19,221 nucleotides of DNA, from NCBI GenBank assembly GCA_018224315.1, contig JAGTVF010000361.1:1-19221 (forward strand). The letters run 5' to 3'. The DNA is from Desulfobacterales bacterium (GTDB taxonomy: Bacteria; Desulfobacterota; Desulfobacteria; Desulfobacterales; Desulfosalsimonadaceae). A program made the translations under genes and the position numbers. The notes under the pieces are model-generated. The model was given only the letters and a program-made list of their open reading frames with translations, was not told where the DNA came from and ran no database searches. Below are positions 13,178-17,685 of this stretch, in pieces (position 1 is the first letter of the stretch; the number at the start of each line of letters is the position of its first letter).

Positions 13178-13436
13178 TGTTACTCCTGAAAAAATCAAAT
13201 ATTTAAGTTTTTGCCGTCCTGACTGCCGTTTATGGGCTGGGCTACGCATAAATCAAACCATGGCCCGGAGTCAATAGCCATGTGACGGCAAAAAACGATT
13301 TTGCATCCCCCGGGGATATGATAGTTGGGGTTTTACGGTCTTAATGCGTCAGTATTTTGAAATATGAGACTGAAGAATATATCCATTTTATTTTTTCGCC
13401 TGTATGGTTGATTCATTATTTAGCAGGGTTGAAGAC
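13178..13436. other. Divergent intergenic region between lon and the prepilin peptidase
   Basis: These 259 bases hold no coding sequence I can support. Towards lon, TTGACT (13269-13274) and TTATGC (13246-13251) are 17 nt apart, a weak sigma-70-like pair. A perfect inverted repeat, ATCCCCCGGGGAT, is at 13305-13317; its role is unknown and it has no T-tract on either side. No clear promoter towards the prepilin peptidase was found. Confidence 0.4.
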
Positions 13437-14216
13437 ATGTCAAATCTGATTTTCTGGTTTTTGGTATTTTGCGCCGGTCTTTGCATGGGAAGTTTTTTAA
13501 ATGTCTGCGTCAGCCGGCTTCCCCAGAAACTGTCCATTGTTCGGCCCGGCTCCCGGTGCCCGGACTGTTCGGCGCCCATTGCCTTTTATGACAACATCCC
13601 CGTTATCAGCTGGCTGCTGCTCAAGGGCCGCTGCAGAGCCTGCGGCCGGAGCATTTCAATACGCTACCCCATAGTGGAGCTTGCCGCCGGGGTCATGGCT
13701 GTGCTTGTGGTTGTCCAGTACGGCCCGGTTCTGTCGGCCTTGATTTATTTTTTGCTGATCTGTGCGCTGATAACCATATCCCTTATCGATCTGGACCATC
13801 GCATCATCCCGGACATAATTAGCCTGCCCGGTATTGCCGCCGGGTTTCTGGCCTCGTTTCTGCTCCCTGAACTGTCCTGGCTTGATTCATTGCTCGGCAT
13901 ACTGATTGGCGGCGGCCTTCTCTATGCTGTAGCCCTGGGCTATTACCTGTTTGCCGGCAAGGAAGGCATGGGCGGCGGCGATATCAAGCTTTTGGCCATG
14001 CTCGGAGCCTTTATCGGCTGGAAAGGCGTTTTTTTCACCATTTTTACGGCATCACTGATCGGAACCATCACCGGAATAATCATGATGCTGGCTGCGGGCA
14101 AAAATCTCAAGTTTGCCGTGCCTTTCGGACCGTTTCTGTCCCTGGGCGCGGTGGTTTACCTGTTTTTCGGACAGAGCCTGATTCAATGGTACTTTTTCGG
14201 GCCCCGGCCCTGGTAA
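13437..14216 (+). CDS. pilD: Type IV prepilin peptidase / leader peptidase (PilD family, A24)
   Basis: This membrane aspartyl protease removes the leader of type IV pilins and type II secretion pseudopilins and usually N-methylates the new N-terminus. The 259-residue protein starts with a membrane segment and GSFLNVCVSRLP. A cytoplasmic loop with two CxxC pairs (CPDC, CRAC) follows, as in zinc-binding bifunctional PilD. The catalytic aspartates are Asp118 in SLIDLDHRIIPD and Asp182 in GMGGGDIKLLAMLGA. Several further membrane segments complete the fold. I chose ATG 13437 because AGGG lies about 9 nt upstream; ATG 13404 adds eleven residues and has no ribosome binding site. No pilus gene is in the window. 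Confidence 0.93.
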   Translation: MSNLIFWFLVFCAGLCMGSFLNVCVSRLPQKLSIVRPGSRCPDCSAPIAFYDNIPVISWLLLKGRCRACGRSISIRYPIVELAAGVMAVLVVVQYGPVLSALIYFLLICALITISLIDLDHRIIPDIISLPGIAAGFLASFLLPELSWLDSLLGILIGGGLLYAVALGYYLFAGKEGMGGGDIKLLAMLGAFIGWKGVFFTIFTASLIGTITGIIMMLAAGKNLKFAVPFGPFLSLGAVVYLFFGQSLIQWYFFGPRPW

Positions 14217-14483
14217 CCTACCGGCAAACCCCAATGAATTTGAACAAGTCTTTAAATCATGCTTGACACGGCTGTTTTGGCCAAGTATTGTTACCGGAAA
14301 TCAAGATTGCAAACAGTGATTCAGAGACAATTGTGTTTTTATATTGCATGATATGACTGCTGACCCGTATTTGGCCTCAATGGGCGCCATAGATCATCGC
14401 CTTTAATCGTTTCTGCCGTATCCGGCAAGGCAGAACGAACCCCTGAATATCAACCACCCAAAAGCAATGAAAGGAGTCGTGCA
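14217..14483 (+). other. Leader region of the HU gene
   Basis: This 267-base region separates the prepilin peptidase from HU and has no supported coding sequence. It contains the promoter at 14263-14291 and, 47 nt before the HU start, a strong hairpin at 14408-14437: TTCTGCC pairs with GGCAGAA, extended by CG/CG across one bulged base. An alternative inner stem TGCC/GGCA is also possible. No T-tract follows it. From the predicted promoter the untranslated leader would be about 185 nt, long for a small gene. Confidence 0.5.
14263..14291 (+). promoter_or_regulatory. Candidate sigma-70 promoter of the HU gene
   Basis: TTGACA (14263-14268), a 17-nt spacer and TATTGT (14286-14291, 4 of 6 matches) point towards the HU gene. 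It lies 47 nt after the prepilin peptidase stop, so HU probably has its own transcript. Confidence 0.6.
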
Positions 14484-14753
14484 GTGAACAAGGCAGATTT
14501 AGTAAACGAAGTGGCAAAAGTCGTCAGCACCAAAAAAGAGGCCCAGGCAGCAGTTGATTGTGTGATCCAGACCATCACAGACGCCATGTCAAAAGGCGAC
14601 AGTGTAACCCTGGTCGGATTCGGCACATTCAAATCGGTCAAGCGCGAAGCCCGCACCGGAAGAAACCCGCAAACCGGTGCCGCCATTAATATCAAGGCGC
14701 GCAAAGTCCCCAAATTCACCCCGGGAAAAGGTTTGAAAGAATCGCTCAATTAA
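14484..14753 (+). CDS. hup: HU-family DNA-binding protein
   Basis: The 89-residue protein is a nucleoid-associated histone-like protein that binds and bends DNA as a dimer. It starts MNKADLVNEVAKVV with the helical dimerisation half, then VTLVGFGTFKS, and the DNA-binding beta-arm with the signature REARTGRNPQTG and the intercalating proline. It ends KARKVPKFTPGKGLKESLN. The length fits HU and not IHF, whose subunits have different arm sequences. The start codon is GTG at 14484-14486 with a strong AAAGGAG 7 nt upstream. A long leader precedes it and a strong terminator follows. Confidence 0.96.
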   Translation: MNKADLVNEVAKVVSTKKEAQAAVDCVIQTITDAMSKGDSVTLVGFGTFKSVKREARTGRNPQTGAAINIKARKVPKFTPGKGLKESLN

Positions 14754-14821
14754 TTGTGCACACACCCCGGTACTGTGCCGGACGGCCTTTGGCCAGATCG
14801 ATGAGCCGGTATCCGCTTTTT

Positions 14822-14867
14822 AAAAAGGCGACACGCAGTCCTTACTGATCTGCGTGTCGCCTTTTTT
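14822..14867. terminator. Strong bidirectional rho-independent terminator between HU and the HesB-like gene
   Basis: A 17-bp perfect stem (14822-14838 with 14850-14866; core GGCGACACGCAG) encloses an 11-nt loop. It is flanked by an A-run on the left and a run of six T on the right, so it can act for transcripts from either side. HU ends 68 nt to the left and the HesB-like gene ends 35 nt to the right, facing it. Confidence 0.93.
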
Positions 14868-14901
14868 GATATTTTGACGGCTTGTCAGCCAAGTGCTGTA
14901 T

Positions 14902-15204
14902 CTAGCAGGTTCCCCCGCAGCTTGAGCATCCCTGGCCCAGTTCAATGCTGGAGCTGATGGCAAACCCGAACCCGGTAAAATCGATTTTAATGGGCTGGGC
15001 TTCGGCCAGGAAATCCTTATTTGCAATGAACTGAAAATTGTTCACGTCAAAGACTTCATCGGATTCGTTTGGTTCATCCAGAACCATGGCCAGAGACGGC
15101 CCCCCTCACCCGCCGGGGTTGAGCAGGACCCGGATGGGCTTGGGGTCCTTGTCTTTGAAAAATTCCGAAATCTTCTCGTATGCTGCATCTGTTACTTCAA
15201 GCAT
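14902..15204 (-). CDS. HesB/IscA-like selenoprotein (in-frame UGA read as selenocysteine)
   Basis: HesB/IscA proteins are small A-type carriers or scaffolds in iron-sulfur cluster assembly. The frame from ATG 15204 has an excellent ribosome binding site (GGAGGG, spacing 6) and runs 100 codons to TAG, with one in-frame TGA at codon 33 (15106-15108). The residues around it read IRVLLNPGG-U-GGPSLAMVLDEP. This aligns with the IscA region around its first conserved Cys (Cys35 in E. coli), so the UGA sits exactly at that Cys. The C-terminus, CSSCGGTC with Cys93, Cys96 and Cys100, replaces the usual CGCG pair. A SECIS-like hairpin follows the UGA. HesB-like selenoproteins are a described bacterial family. 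It has its own promoter region and terminator. Alternatives are a nonsense-mutated gene or sequencing error, which I consider unlikely. SelA, SelB, SelC and SelD would have to be encoded elsewhere. Confidence 0.88.
15070..15086 (-). promoter_or_regulatory. Candidate bacterial SECIS hairpin
   Basis: In the HesB-like mRNA, TGGTTC (15081-15086) pairs perfectly with GAACCA (15070-15075) around the loop TGGAT. The first loop base is 26 nt after the UGA, and G is its second base. As I remember the bacterial SECIS consensus, the apical loop lies about 16-37 nt downstream with a G in the first two loop positions; this hairpin fits. A nearer hairpin (GGCC/GGCC at 15088-15101) may stack below it. Confidence 0.65.
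15106..15108 (-). other. Selenocysteine (UGA) codon 33 of the HesB-like gene
   Basis: TGA is in frame with the ATG at 15204 and the TAG at 14902. Coding similarity to HesB/IscA continues unbroken on both sides, and the codon replaces the first conserved cysteine of the family. Confidence 0.86.
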
Positions 15205-15430
15205 GTCTATCCCTCCAAGGTTCATTTGATGGCAATATATAAGTTAAAGTTTTAAAAACTAGCCGCAAACATCGTTATTGTCAACAAAAATTTTTTTTGA
15301 CTTGCTTTTGCGGATCTGCTATTGCACCGGACACCGTGAAAATACGGCAGATTGTTTTTTGGCCGGCTGCCATTTCCCGGCGCCGTAAATACACAATAAC
15401 CACGATTGAATAAAAAGAAAGGATACAAGC
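15205..15430. other. Divergent promoter region between the HesB-like gene and ndk
   Basis: This A/T-rich 226-base region has two face-away promoter candidates. Towards the HesB-like gene, TTGACA (15279-15284) and TAGTTT (15256-15261) are 17 nt apart. Towards ndk, TTGACT (15297-15302) and TATTGC (15320-15325) are 17 nt apart. The two -35 boxes are 12 bp apart across a run of A and T. The -10 boxes are poor, so this is tentative. No coding sequence was seen. Confidence 0.45.
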
Positions 15431-15847
15431 ATGGAACAAACCCTGTCCATTATCAAGCCAGACGGCGTCAACCAGGGCCTGATCGGCGAAGTCATAAAGC
15501 GTTTTGAGGCAAAGGGCATCCGGATTGCGGCCATGAAAATGCTGCAGATGACAAAAAAACAGGCCCAGGGCTTCTATGCCGTCCACCGGGAGCGCCCGTT
15601 TTTTGAAAGCCTGACCGATTTCATGACCTCGGGCCCTGTCGTGGCCATGGTGCTTGAAGGCGAAAACGTGATTGAAAAAAACCGCAGCCTCATGGGGGCC
15701 ACCAACTACAAGGAAGCCGAGGAAGGCACCATCCGACGGGATTTTGCCACGGATATTGAAAAAAATGTGGTGCACGGCTCGGATTCACCCGAAACCGCGG
15801 CCTTTGAAATCAGTTACTTTTTCAACCAGTTTGAACTGGTCAGCTAA
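15431..15847 (+). CDS. ndk: Nucleoside diphosphate kinase
   Basis: Ndk transfers the gamma phosphate from ATP to nucleoside diphosphates through a phosphohistidine and balances NTP and dNTP pools. The 138-residue protein starts [20 protein letters not shown], which is typical. It contains [10 protein letters not shown] and [14 protein letters not shown]. The active site [12 protein letters not shown] carries the catalytic His115. Length is normal for bacteria. The ATG has AAAGGA about 8 nt upstream. It appears to be transcribed alone, between a divergent promoter region and its own terminator. Confidence 0.98.
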
Positions 15848-15856
15848 ATATCAGTC

Positions 15857-15893
15857 GGGGGCGGATATAAAATTTTCGCCCCCTGACTTTTTT
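15857..15893 (+). terminator. Rho-independent terminator of ndk
   Basis: GGGGGCG (15857-15863) pairs with CGCCCCC (15877-15883), and a T-run (15888-15893) follows after TGAC. It lies 10 nt after the ndk stop. lepA ends at 15892 on the other strand, so the T-run overlaps the lepA stop. The same hairpin may also help end the lepA transcript, though its T-tract there is poor. Confidence 0.8.
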
Positions 15894-17685
15894 ACTCTTT
15901 GCTTTTTAAAACGGACAGAAACGCGCTTTGCGGGATCATCACCTCCCCGGCCATCTTCATCCGCTTTTTTCCCTTTTTCTGCTTTTCCAGCAACTTGCGC
16001 TTCCGGGTAATATCACCGCCGTAGCACTTGGCGGTCACGTCCTTGCGATAGGCATTAATGGTTTCCCGGGCAATGACCTTGCCGCCGATGGCGCCCTGGA
16101 GGGCGATTTTAAACATGTGCCGCGGGATTTCCTCCTTTAGCTTCTCGCATGTCTGCCGGGCCCGAAACGGGGCCTTGTCCCTATGTACCAGCTGGGACAA
16201 GGCATCCACGCGTTCGCTGTTGATCAAAATATCCACGCGCACGATATCGGACTGCCGGTAATCGAGCATGTCATAATCAAACGAGCCATAGCCCTGTGTG
16301 ACGGTTTTGAGCCGGTCGTAAAAATCATAAACCACCTCGGCCAGGGGCATTTCAAACACCATTTCCATGCGGCTGCTGCCAAAGTACTGGTAATTGGTGT
16401 TAATCCCCCGCCGTTCCAGGCAAAGCTGCATGATCTGGCCCATGTAGGTATCCGGCGTAAAAATCGAGGCCCGGATGTAGGGCTCCCGGATATAGGCGAT
16501 ATTGACCGGATCCGGGTAAAGCGCCGGGTTTTCGATTGTCATTACCGTGCCGTCGTTTAGCCCGATTTCATACTGTACCGAGGGTGCGGTGATGATCAGG
16601 GAAAGATCGTATTCCCGCTCCAGGCGCGCCTGGACAATCTCCAGGTGAAGCAGTCCCAGAAAACCGCACCTGAACCCGAAGCCCAGGGCCGCGGATGTGT
16701 CCTTTTCATAGACAAGGGAGGCGTCGTTTAATTTCAGCTTGTCCATGGCCGCGGCCAGATCCGGATACTCATCCGTGTCCACCGGGTAAATGGAGGAAAA
16801 CACCACGGGCTTGGGTTCCTTAAAGCCCGGCAGGGCCTTTTCGCACGGGCGTTTTTTTACGGTAATGGTATCGCCGGTGCGCGTGTCGCTGACAGTTTTG
16901 ATTCCGGCGATGATATAGCCCACCCGCCCGGCGGTGATAAACTTCTGGGGCACCCGTTTGATCTGGAAGATGCCGGTTTCCTCCACCGTGTATTCTGCCT
17001 GATTGGACATGAACATAATCCGGTCGCCGGGCCGCAGGGTGCCGTCGATCATCCGGAAATGCACCACGGTTCCCCTGAACGGATCATAATGGGAATCAAA
17101 GATCAGGGCTTTAACAGGTGCGTCCGGATCTCCCTGGGGCGGGGGCAGCTGGGTAACAATGGCTTCCAGGATCTCCTCTGTTCCGATCCACTCCTTGGCC
17201 GATGCCAGAATGGCCGTGTCCGGATCAAGGCCGAGTTCATCTGCAATCTGGAGCTTAACCTTTTCTATATCAGCAGAGGGCAGATCAATCTTGTTGATCA
17301 CCGGAATGATTTCCAGGTCATGCTCCAGGGCCAGGTACAGATTGGCAATGGTCTGGGCCTGAACCCCCTGGCTGGCGTCCACCAGCAGCAGCGCACCCTC
17401 GCAGGAGGCCAAAGCCCGGGAGACCTCATAGGAGAAATCCACATGGCCCGGGGTGTCAATGAGATTGAGATAATAAAGATGGCCGTCTTTTGCGGTATAG
17501 GGAAGACAGATGGTCTGGCTTTTGATGGTAATGCCCCGCTCCCGCTCCAGATCCATGCTGTCTAGCATCTGGTCCTTGAAATCCCGTTCAGCCACAATGT
17601 CGGTGGACTGGATCAGGCGGTCGGAAAGGGTTGACTTTCCGTGGTCAATATGGGCGATAATGCTGAAGTTGCGAATGTTTTTCAT
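15892..17685 (-). CDS. lepA: Translation elongation factor 4 (LepA), back-translocating GTPase
   Basis: LepA is a ribosome-associated GTPase resembling EF-G; it acts on stalled or maturing ribosomes. The 597-residue protein is of normal length. The G domain shows AHIDHGKST (G1), [11 protein letters not shown] (G2), [12 protein letters not shown] (G3) and NKIDLPSAD (G4). The family-specific C-terminal domain includes [20 protein letters not shown] and ends with [14 protein letters not shown]. The ATG at 17683-17685 has a modest GGAAT upstream. It is 105 nt downstream of the rhomboid gene, and whether it is in the same operon is unclear. Confidence 0.98.

What the first reader, a model, noticed from the sequence alone, without database searches (positions are those of the whole stretch)
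14902..15204. Selenocysteine-containing HesB/IscA-like protein hidden by an in-frame UGA
Seen: a strong ribosome binding site (GGAGGG), an ATG at 15204 and a frame of 100 codons broken only by TGA at codon 33. The residues before (VLLNPGG) and after (GGPSLAMVLDEP) the TGA belong to one HesB/IscA-like protein. The TGA falls on the first conserved Cys, an Fe-S ligand in IscA. Known: a family of HesB-like selenoproteins exists in bacteria (TIGR01911, as I recall). Inferred: this organism makes selenocysteine and uses Sec in place of the cluster-ligand or redox Cys. The CSSCGGTC tail, with three Cys instead of CGCG, suggests a chemistry different from classical IscA. A standard gene caller would report a 61-residue fragment or nothing.
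Basis: partly seen in the sequence, partly recalled or inferred. Interest (0 to 1): 0.85.

Follow-up and report, generated by a model that had tools for sequence, protein, structure and literature searches.

The report
Selenocysteine HesB/IscA-like protein gene
A small iron-sulfur-carrier-like bacterial protein appears to be built with selenium at its key metal-binding position, read from a codon that normally means stop; this kind of selenoprotein was already known.

Summary
Observation and main interpretation both hold. Window 14902-15204 (minus strand) is a 100-residue HesB/IscA-like gene with one in-frame TGA (15106-15108, codon 33) at the first conserved Cys position. TGA stands at the aligned codon in 53 of 68 homologous genes found in 60 genomes. 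A hairpin, GGNUC-UGGAY-GAN'CC, starts 23 nt after the T of TGA; all five pairs form in 66 of 69 TGA genes and 1 of 26 Cys homologues. The genome has tRNA-Sec(UCA) and a selB cut by a contig end. selA and a convincing selD were not found in this 91%-complete assembly, though relatives have them. HesB-like selenoproteins have been in print since at least 2005. So: a real new member of a known kind, lost by standard gene calling. Its role is unproven; best guess, an A-type Fe-S carrier with a selenolate ligand. Side leads: Sec/Cys tandem hesB pairs, and Cys-hesB genes beside selC*-type tRNAs.

The parts
14902..15204 (-). HesB/IscA-like selenoprotein gene, 100 residues, in-frame TGA read as Sec at codon 33, TAG stop
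   Evidence: NF038090 109.3 bits over cut-off 85; PF01521 29.6 over 26.3; IscA-like fold
15106..15108 (-). in-frame TGA (Sec33) at the first conserved Cys position of IscA-like proteins
   Evidence: coordinates; TGA at the aligned codon in 53 of 68 homologous genes; invariant column in 54 TGA proteins
15071..15085 (-). SECIS-like hairpin GGUUC-UGGAU-GAACC, offsets 23-37 from the T of TGA, G at loop positions 2 and 3
   Evidence: all five pairs in 66 of 69 TGA genes against 1 of 26 Cys homologues; pair 25/35 varies U-A, C-G, G-C
15205..15222 (-). upstream stretch with the GGAGGG Shine-Dalgarno-like site
14820..14862 (.). strong inverted repeat followed by T: intrinsic-terminator-like hairpin between convergent hesB and the HU gene
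   Evidence: -26.5 kcal/mol; sequence

Best explanation
The gene makes a 100-residue selenoprotein of the IscA/HesB family. SelB with Sec-tRNA-Sec (anticodon UCA) binds the hairpin just downstream of codon 33 and directs Sec to that UGA. Shown by computation: the conserved UGA, the hairpin that goes with UGA, tRNA-Sec and a partial selB in the genome, the fold. Inferred: the protein works like an A-type Fe-S carrier or iron-binding protein in which Sec33, Cys96 and Cys100 take the place of the three ligand cysteines of IscA, the selenolate giving a more nucleophilic or more reversibly oxidised ligand. I put about 0.97 on Sec insertion and about 0.5 on the carrier role; the confidence below is for the selenoprotein identity.
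For: Family membership. TGA at the aligned codon in 53 of 68 homologous genes; 52 of 60 genomes have a TGA copy. Hairpin: all five pairs in 66 of 69 TGA genes against 1 of 26 Cys homologues; its Leu codon is CTG in 53 of 53 while CTG is 115 of 308 Leu codons elsewhere in these genes. Own genome: tRNA-Sec(UCA) 76.5 bits and a SelB N-terminus running off contig C8. Of the 60 genomes, selA passes its cut-off in 51 and tRNA-Sec its gathering score in 50; selD passes in 6 of 9 genus genomes, each with one TGA. The ortholog at the same locus in G025 (L071) has Cys and only 2 of 5 hairpin pairs. Model with pLDDT 83.7; best Foldseek hits IscA and SufA.
Against: selA gave no match and selD only 54.7 bits (cut-off 125) in the own assembly; the selB match is 227.9 bits, under its cut-off of 242.25, being cut by the contig end. 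The region folds no better than shuffles by energy alone (z -0.49). tRNA-Sec does not separate TGA genomes from others in a phylum sample: 62 of 66 against 73 of 82, Fisher p 0.39, as nearly all have it. The 26 Cys homologues are on average more distant, and the hairpin lies in codons of conserved residues, so part of the contrast may come from protein divergence. I saw no Fe-S assembly gene among the recurrent neighbours printed (not every neighbour was annotated). The last ten residues, with the tail Cys, are unordered in the model, so ligand geometry is not shown.
Confidence: 0.93

Rival explanations
1. The UGA is (also) read as cysteine by a second system, selC* tRNA-Cys(UCA) with SelB*, for example when selenium is short.
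For: The two closest relatives, G003 and G004, carry a second UCA tRNA of the selC* type beside a second SelB-like gene, though that gene scores under the selB cut-off (218.2 and 219.2 against 242.25). selC* tRNA-Cys and SelB* are described for Desulfobacterales (PMC7609411).
Against: Only one tRNA-Sec match over the gathering score in the window's own genome. Of the 52 genomes with a TGA copy only 11 show a second match over the gathering score (hand count, whose filters may lose weak matches; six of the 11 examined). In the six examined selC* genomes the TGA-hesB hairpin is the usual one: complete in five, 4 of 5 pairs in G048 (by eye).
Confidence: 0.05
2. Sequencing error or a decaying gene: the real codon is TGC or TGT, or the gene is dead.
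For: The window is a contig of a draft assembly of 384 contigs.
Against: TGA at the same codon in 52 genomes, with no other stop inside and 33-98% identity in the relatives.
Confidence: 0.005
3. UGA is an ordinary sense codon (such as Trp) in this organism.
For: Five public proteins show W at this position (P0008, P0010, P0011, P0016, P0017), probably UGA translated with another code; their DNA was not checked.
Against: 4 of 17 other listed window genes end in TGA. 14 of the 15 non-TGA genes have Cys there or at the next aligned residue; the 15th, L090, lacks that part. The hairpin accompanies TGA.
Confidence: 0.005
4. A selenoprotein, but a thiol/selenol redox protein or metal sensor and not an Fe-S carrier; Sec33 forms a selenenylsulfide with a tail Cys. 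(Rival to the role only.)
For: A review thinks it likely that most uncharacterised selenoproteins have redox functions (PMC13188914 passage). No Fe-S assembly gene among the recurrent neighbours printed. Flexible Cys-rich tail.
Against: Fold and the pattern of three conserved ligand-like positions are those of IscA; no CxxU or UxxC motif at Sec33.
Confidence: 0.35

Closest known systems
NCBIfam NF038090 IscA_HesB_Se (IscA/HesB family protein)
   Same: Passes the curated cut-off (109.3 against 85 bits), match over profile positions 1-101/101; 54 of 54 members of alignment A1 match at E 0.001 or better
   Different: Nothing essential; a new member
HesB-like selenoprotein family as reviewed (TIGR01911, motif UxGP)
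   Same: U[GA]GP motif in 53 of 53 TGA genes; a review table lists UxGP (PMC13188914); 11 bacterial HesB-like selenoproteins in 2006, among them Deltaproteobacteria (PMC1794560)
   Different: Scores below the TIGR01911 cut-off (39.3 against 66.35). A 2007 study also had two HesB clusters that did not join (PMC1914089)
IscA / SufA / ErpA A-type Fe-S carriers
   Same: Fold and position of the first conserved Cys; two conserved tail Cys
   Different: Sec in place of the first Cys; tail GCSSCGGTC; 16-23% identity to the nine Foldseek hits with E under 0.001, one of which is DsrR; below the curated cut-offs of TIGR00049, TIGR01997, TIGR02011 and the ErpA models
Methanococcus maripaludis HesB-like selenoprotein
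   Same: HesB-like; identified as a selenoprotein by mutagenesis and 75Se labelling (PMC11097638 passage)
   Different: Archaeal; not compared by sequence here; its disruption mutant was not impaired in nitrogen fixation according to that paper (authors' unpublished observation)

Membership tests
NF038090 IscA_HesB_Se | score over the curated cut-off of 85 bits | tested here: met
   109.3 bits
TIGR01911 HesB_rel_seleno | score over the curated cut-off of 66.35 bits | tested here: not met
   39.3 bits
PF01521 Fe-S_biosyn | score over the gathering score of 26.3 | tested here: met
   29.6 bits
Bacterial selenoprotein | in-frame UGA conserved at a functional Cys position | tested here: met
   53 of 68 homologous genes; Cys in 14 of the other 15, L090 lacking that part
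Bacterial selenoprotein | SECIS hairpin downstream with a G in a small apical loop | tested here: met
   66 of 69 TGA genes against 1 of 26 Cys homologues; feature named in PMC1088965
Bacterial selenoprotein | genome encodes tRNA-Sec and SelB | tested here: met
   tRNA-Sec(UCA) 76.5 bits; SelB N-terminus at a contig end, 227.9 bits over 201 of 581 positions, under the full-length cut-off of 242.25
Bacterial selenoprotein | genome encodes SelA and SelD | tested here: inconclusive
   selA none, selD weak in the own assembly; selA in 51 of 60 genomes, selD in 6 of 9 genus genomes
Bacterial selenoprotein | Sec shown in the protein | not testable with these tools
   needs 75Se labelling or mass spectrometry
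A-type Fe-S carrier (IscA-like) | IscA fold | tested here: met
   Foldseek 1x0g, 1r94, 1s98, 2d2a, E 1.8e-5 to 7.5e-4
A-type Fe-S carrier (IscA-like) | three Cys (or Sec) ligands, Fe/Fe-S binding and transfer | tested here: inconclusive
   Sec33 and Cys96 invariant, Cys100 at least 90%; binding not testable here

The most novel reading that the evidence does not exclude
In this genus the same hesB UGA is decoded in two ways: as Sec by canonical tRNA-Sec/SelB, and as Cys by selC* tRNA-Cys(UCA)/SelB* when selenium is scarce: one codon with two meanings set by selenium supply. G003 and G004, whose HesB is 97-98% identical to the window's, carry tRNA-Sec, selB and a selC*/SelB*-like pair; selA was found in G004 but not in G003.
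Probability: 0.05. Interest if true: 0.7.

Novelty: new member of a known kind. Interest (0 to 1): 0.22.

Why it matters
It shows again that gene callers lose HesB-like selenoproteins: public databases hold 61-66-residue pieces of close relatives that begin just after the UGA (for example P0006, P0019, P0020, P0021, P0034). I know of no biochemical role for Sec at an Fe-S ligand position of a carrier-like protein, so the family could test what a selenolate does to cluster binding. The tandem Sec/Cys gene pairs and the Cys-hesB genes beside selC*-type tRNAs offer natural comparisons.

Tried and rejected
Rfam scan of the window: no match at gathering score, which neither supports nor opposes the hairpin. 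Folding energy of the 63-nt region: no better than shuffles (z -0.49); pair counts across genes were used in its place. Co-occurrence of tRNA-Sec with TGA copies in 148 phylum genomes: uninformative (62 of 66 against 73 of 82, p 0.39). Neighbouring genes suggest no pathway: in 53 TGA loci of about 3 kb, some cut short, the ndk-containing ORF cluster occurs in 30, the macro-domain cluster in 25 and the prepilin peptidase cluster in 24 (one macro representative and the window's HU, ndk, peptidase and lepA genes named by Pfam); only the 14 largest clusters were printed. selC* scan: hesB within 600 nt upstream in only 6 of 62 loci, so the link is not general. Literature on paired Sec/Cys hesB genes or hesB beside selC*: the listings and the passages that I opened did not mention them; the primary selC* paper and the Olavius selenoproteome paper were not held, so I do not claim that it is unpublished. 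Row dropped: L090 was left out of the Cys-hairpin count because its N-terminal part is missing in frame. The DNA behind the five W proteins was not checked.

Full report
What is there. The minus strand from 15204 to 14902 reads ATG ... TAG with one in-frame TGA at codon 33 (15106-15108), preceded by AACCTTGGAGGGATAGAC. Table 11 yields only a 61-residue ORF from an internal ATG at 15087. A terminator-like hairpin of -26.5 kcal/mol lies between this gene and the convergent HU gene, and ndk runs divergently on the other side, so the gene looks monocistronic (inference).

Family. All 54 proteins of alignment A1 match NF038090 at E 0.001 or better. By sequence the solved relatives are AQ_1857, HI1723, IscA (yfhF) and SufA. 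An AlphaFold2 model (pLDDT 83.7, last ten residues unordered) is closest to IscA and SufA structures. Residue 33 aligns with the first conserved Cys of these proteins; that this Cys is an Fe-S ligand of IscA is recalled knowledge.

Conservation of the UGA. In 60 genomes (the own one and 59 relatives) 55 had a match, and 52 had at least one copy with one TGA. I collected all 68 matching genes; 53 have TGA at the aligned codon and 15 do not. Of the 15, 14 have Cys there or next to it and L090 lacks that part. The TGA column, G32, G35, P36 and Cys96 are among the invariant columns of 54 TGA proteins, and Cys100 is at least 90% conserved; Cys93 is in neither list. U[GA]GP occurs in 53 of 53, matching the UxGP motif listed for HesB-like selenoproteins (PMC13188914, passages).

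The SECIS. From offset 23 after the T of TGA the window reads GGUUC-UGGAU-GAACC. In the 53 genes the pairs 23/37, 24/36, 25/35, 26/34 and 27/33 form in 53, 51, 52, 52 and 53; pair 25/35 is U-A in 29, C-G in 22, G-C in 1 and unpaired C-A in 1. The G-C case (L047) differs in both amino acids concerned. The Leu codon in the hairpin is CTG in 53 of 53, while CTG is 115 of 308 Leu codons elsewhere in these genes. With 16 TGA genes and 12 Cys genes from 18 further phylum loci, all five pairs form in 66 of 69 TGA genes and 1 of 26 Cys homologues (Fisher p 1.5e-18, not corrected for relatedness). The three TGA exceptions have 3, 4 and 4 pairs; the one Cys exception is the distant L091. Cys homologues are on average more distant, so part of the contrast may be protein divergence; but close Cys copies (L071, the tandem partners) also lack the full hairpin. 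Energy alone says nothing. A G in a small apical loop fits the description of bacterial SECIS elements (PMC1088965, passages).

The machinery. The window's genome (2.44 Mb, 384 contigs, completeness 90.91) has tRNA-Sec with anticodon UCA, 76.5 bits against 47, and a SelB N-terminus running off the end of contig C8, which explains a score (227.9) under the full-length cut-off (242.25). selA was not found; selD gave 54.7 bits against 125, which I do not count. Among the 60 genomes selA passes in 51 and tRNA-Sec in 50. Of the 52 with a TGA copy, 50 have selA or a tRNA-Sec of at least 70 bits, and the other two, G002 and G007, have selB over cut-off. selD passes in 6 of 9 genus genomes and carries one TGA in all six. 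The missing genes are most likely gaps in the assembly (inference).

Evolution. G025 has a Cys ortholog (L071) beside prepilin peptidase, HU and ndk genes, as in the window. It groups with the TGA gene of G019 (SH-aLRT 98) and keeps 2 of 5 hairpin pairs: a Sec-to-Cys change with loss of the SECIS. The tree has few columns and many unresolved forks. In a sample of 148 phylum genomes, 76 match NF038090 at E 1e-10, 66 with a TGA copy and 10 only with copies lacking TGA (of these I saw the Cys in G150 and G175 only); tRNA-Sec was found in 135.

How it most likely works. Sec insertion by SelB at UGA33 is as sure as sequence alone can make it. The role is inferred: an A-type Fe-S carrier or iron-binding protein with Sec33, Cys96 and Cys100 as ligands. 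A thiol/selenol redox or sensor role is the main rival. I know of no assay that settles this. The M. maripaludis HesB-like selenoprotein was identified by mutagenesis and 75Se labelling; its function is called not clear, and its disruption did not impair nitrogen fixation (PMC11097638, passages).

What is known. HesB-like selenoproteins appear in lists of 2005 (PMC1088965), 2006 (11 members, Deltaproteobacteria among the hosts; PMC1794560), 2007 (two clusters, one with Desulfovibrio vulgaris; PMC1914089), 2022 and 2026 (PMC9312934, PMC13188914). Of all these I saw passages only. So this is a new member of a known kind.

Side leads. In 10 of the 76 matching phylum genomes a TGA hesB is followed on the same strand by a Cys hesB without the full hairpin, always in that order (10 of 10), with 100-365 nt between the matched stretches. 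They fall in three family groups (f38, f39, f63). In the tree most Cys copies lie with Sec copies of their own group; that of G136 is unplaced and the pair of G096 unresolved. A Cys-hesB lies just upstream of a selC*-type tRNA and a SelB-like gene in four of the 60 genomes (G018, G027, G033, G048); three of the four show a QGCGG motif, the fourth (L090) lacks that part. In 62 named loci with the selC* T-arm sequence, many cut by contig ends, hesB lies within 600 nt upstream in 6 and 3-4.6 kb away in 4 more, and a SelB-like match starts within 200 nt in 38 (hand count). selC* tRNA-Cys and SelB* are known (PMC7609411, passages and section 4); HesB and IscA do not occur in that review's text.

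Noticed in passing
L115-L124 (G160, G136, G070, G096, G129, G155, G199, G203, G178, G071): Tandem pairs of hesB genes: Sec copy first, Cys copy second in 10 of 10, 100-365 nt between the matched stretches, in three family groups; suggests co-expression and perhaps a mixed Sec/Cys oligomer.
   Followed up: partly
L064, L078, L081, L090 (the same places as L175, L168, L157, L161); also L146, L162: Cys-hesB just upstream of a selC*-type tRNA (UCA anticodon, U before CCA), mostly followed by a SelB-like gene. L064, L078, L081 and L162 show a QGCGG motif, L146 GGCGG; the L090 copy lacks its N-terminal part in frame.
   Followed up: partly
L107:6166-8223 (G004), L108:8942-9033 (G003): The two closest relatives carry a second UCA tRNA of selC* type plus a second SelB-like gene (under the selB cut-off) near selD and genes that look Hdr/Mvh-like to me (recalled, not tested); no second tRNA-Sec match over the gathering score in the window's own assembly.
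   Followed up: partly
P0008, P0010, P0011, P0016, P0017: Database proteins with W where others have Cys or Sec, probably UGA translated with another genetic code; DNA not checked.
   Followed up: no
window 13404-17685 and relatives: Neighbourhood prepilin peptidase - HU - hesB(Sec) - ndk - lepA shared with several genus members, and a macro-domain gene near hesB in 25 of 53 TGA loci.
   Followed up: partly
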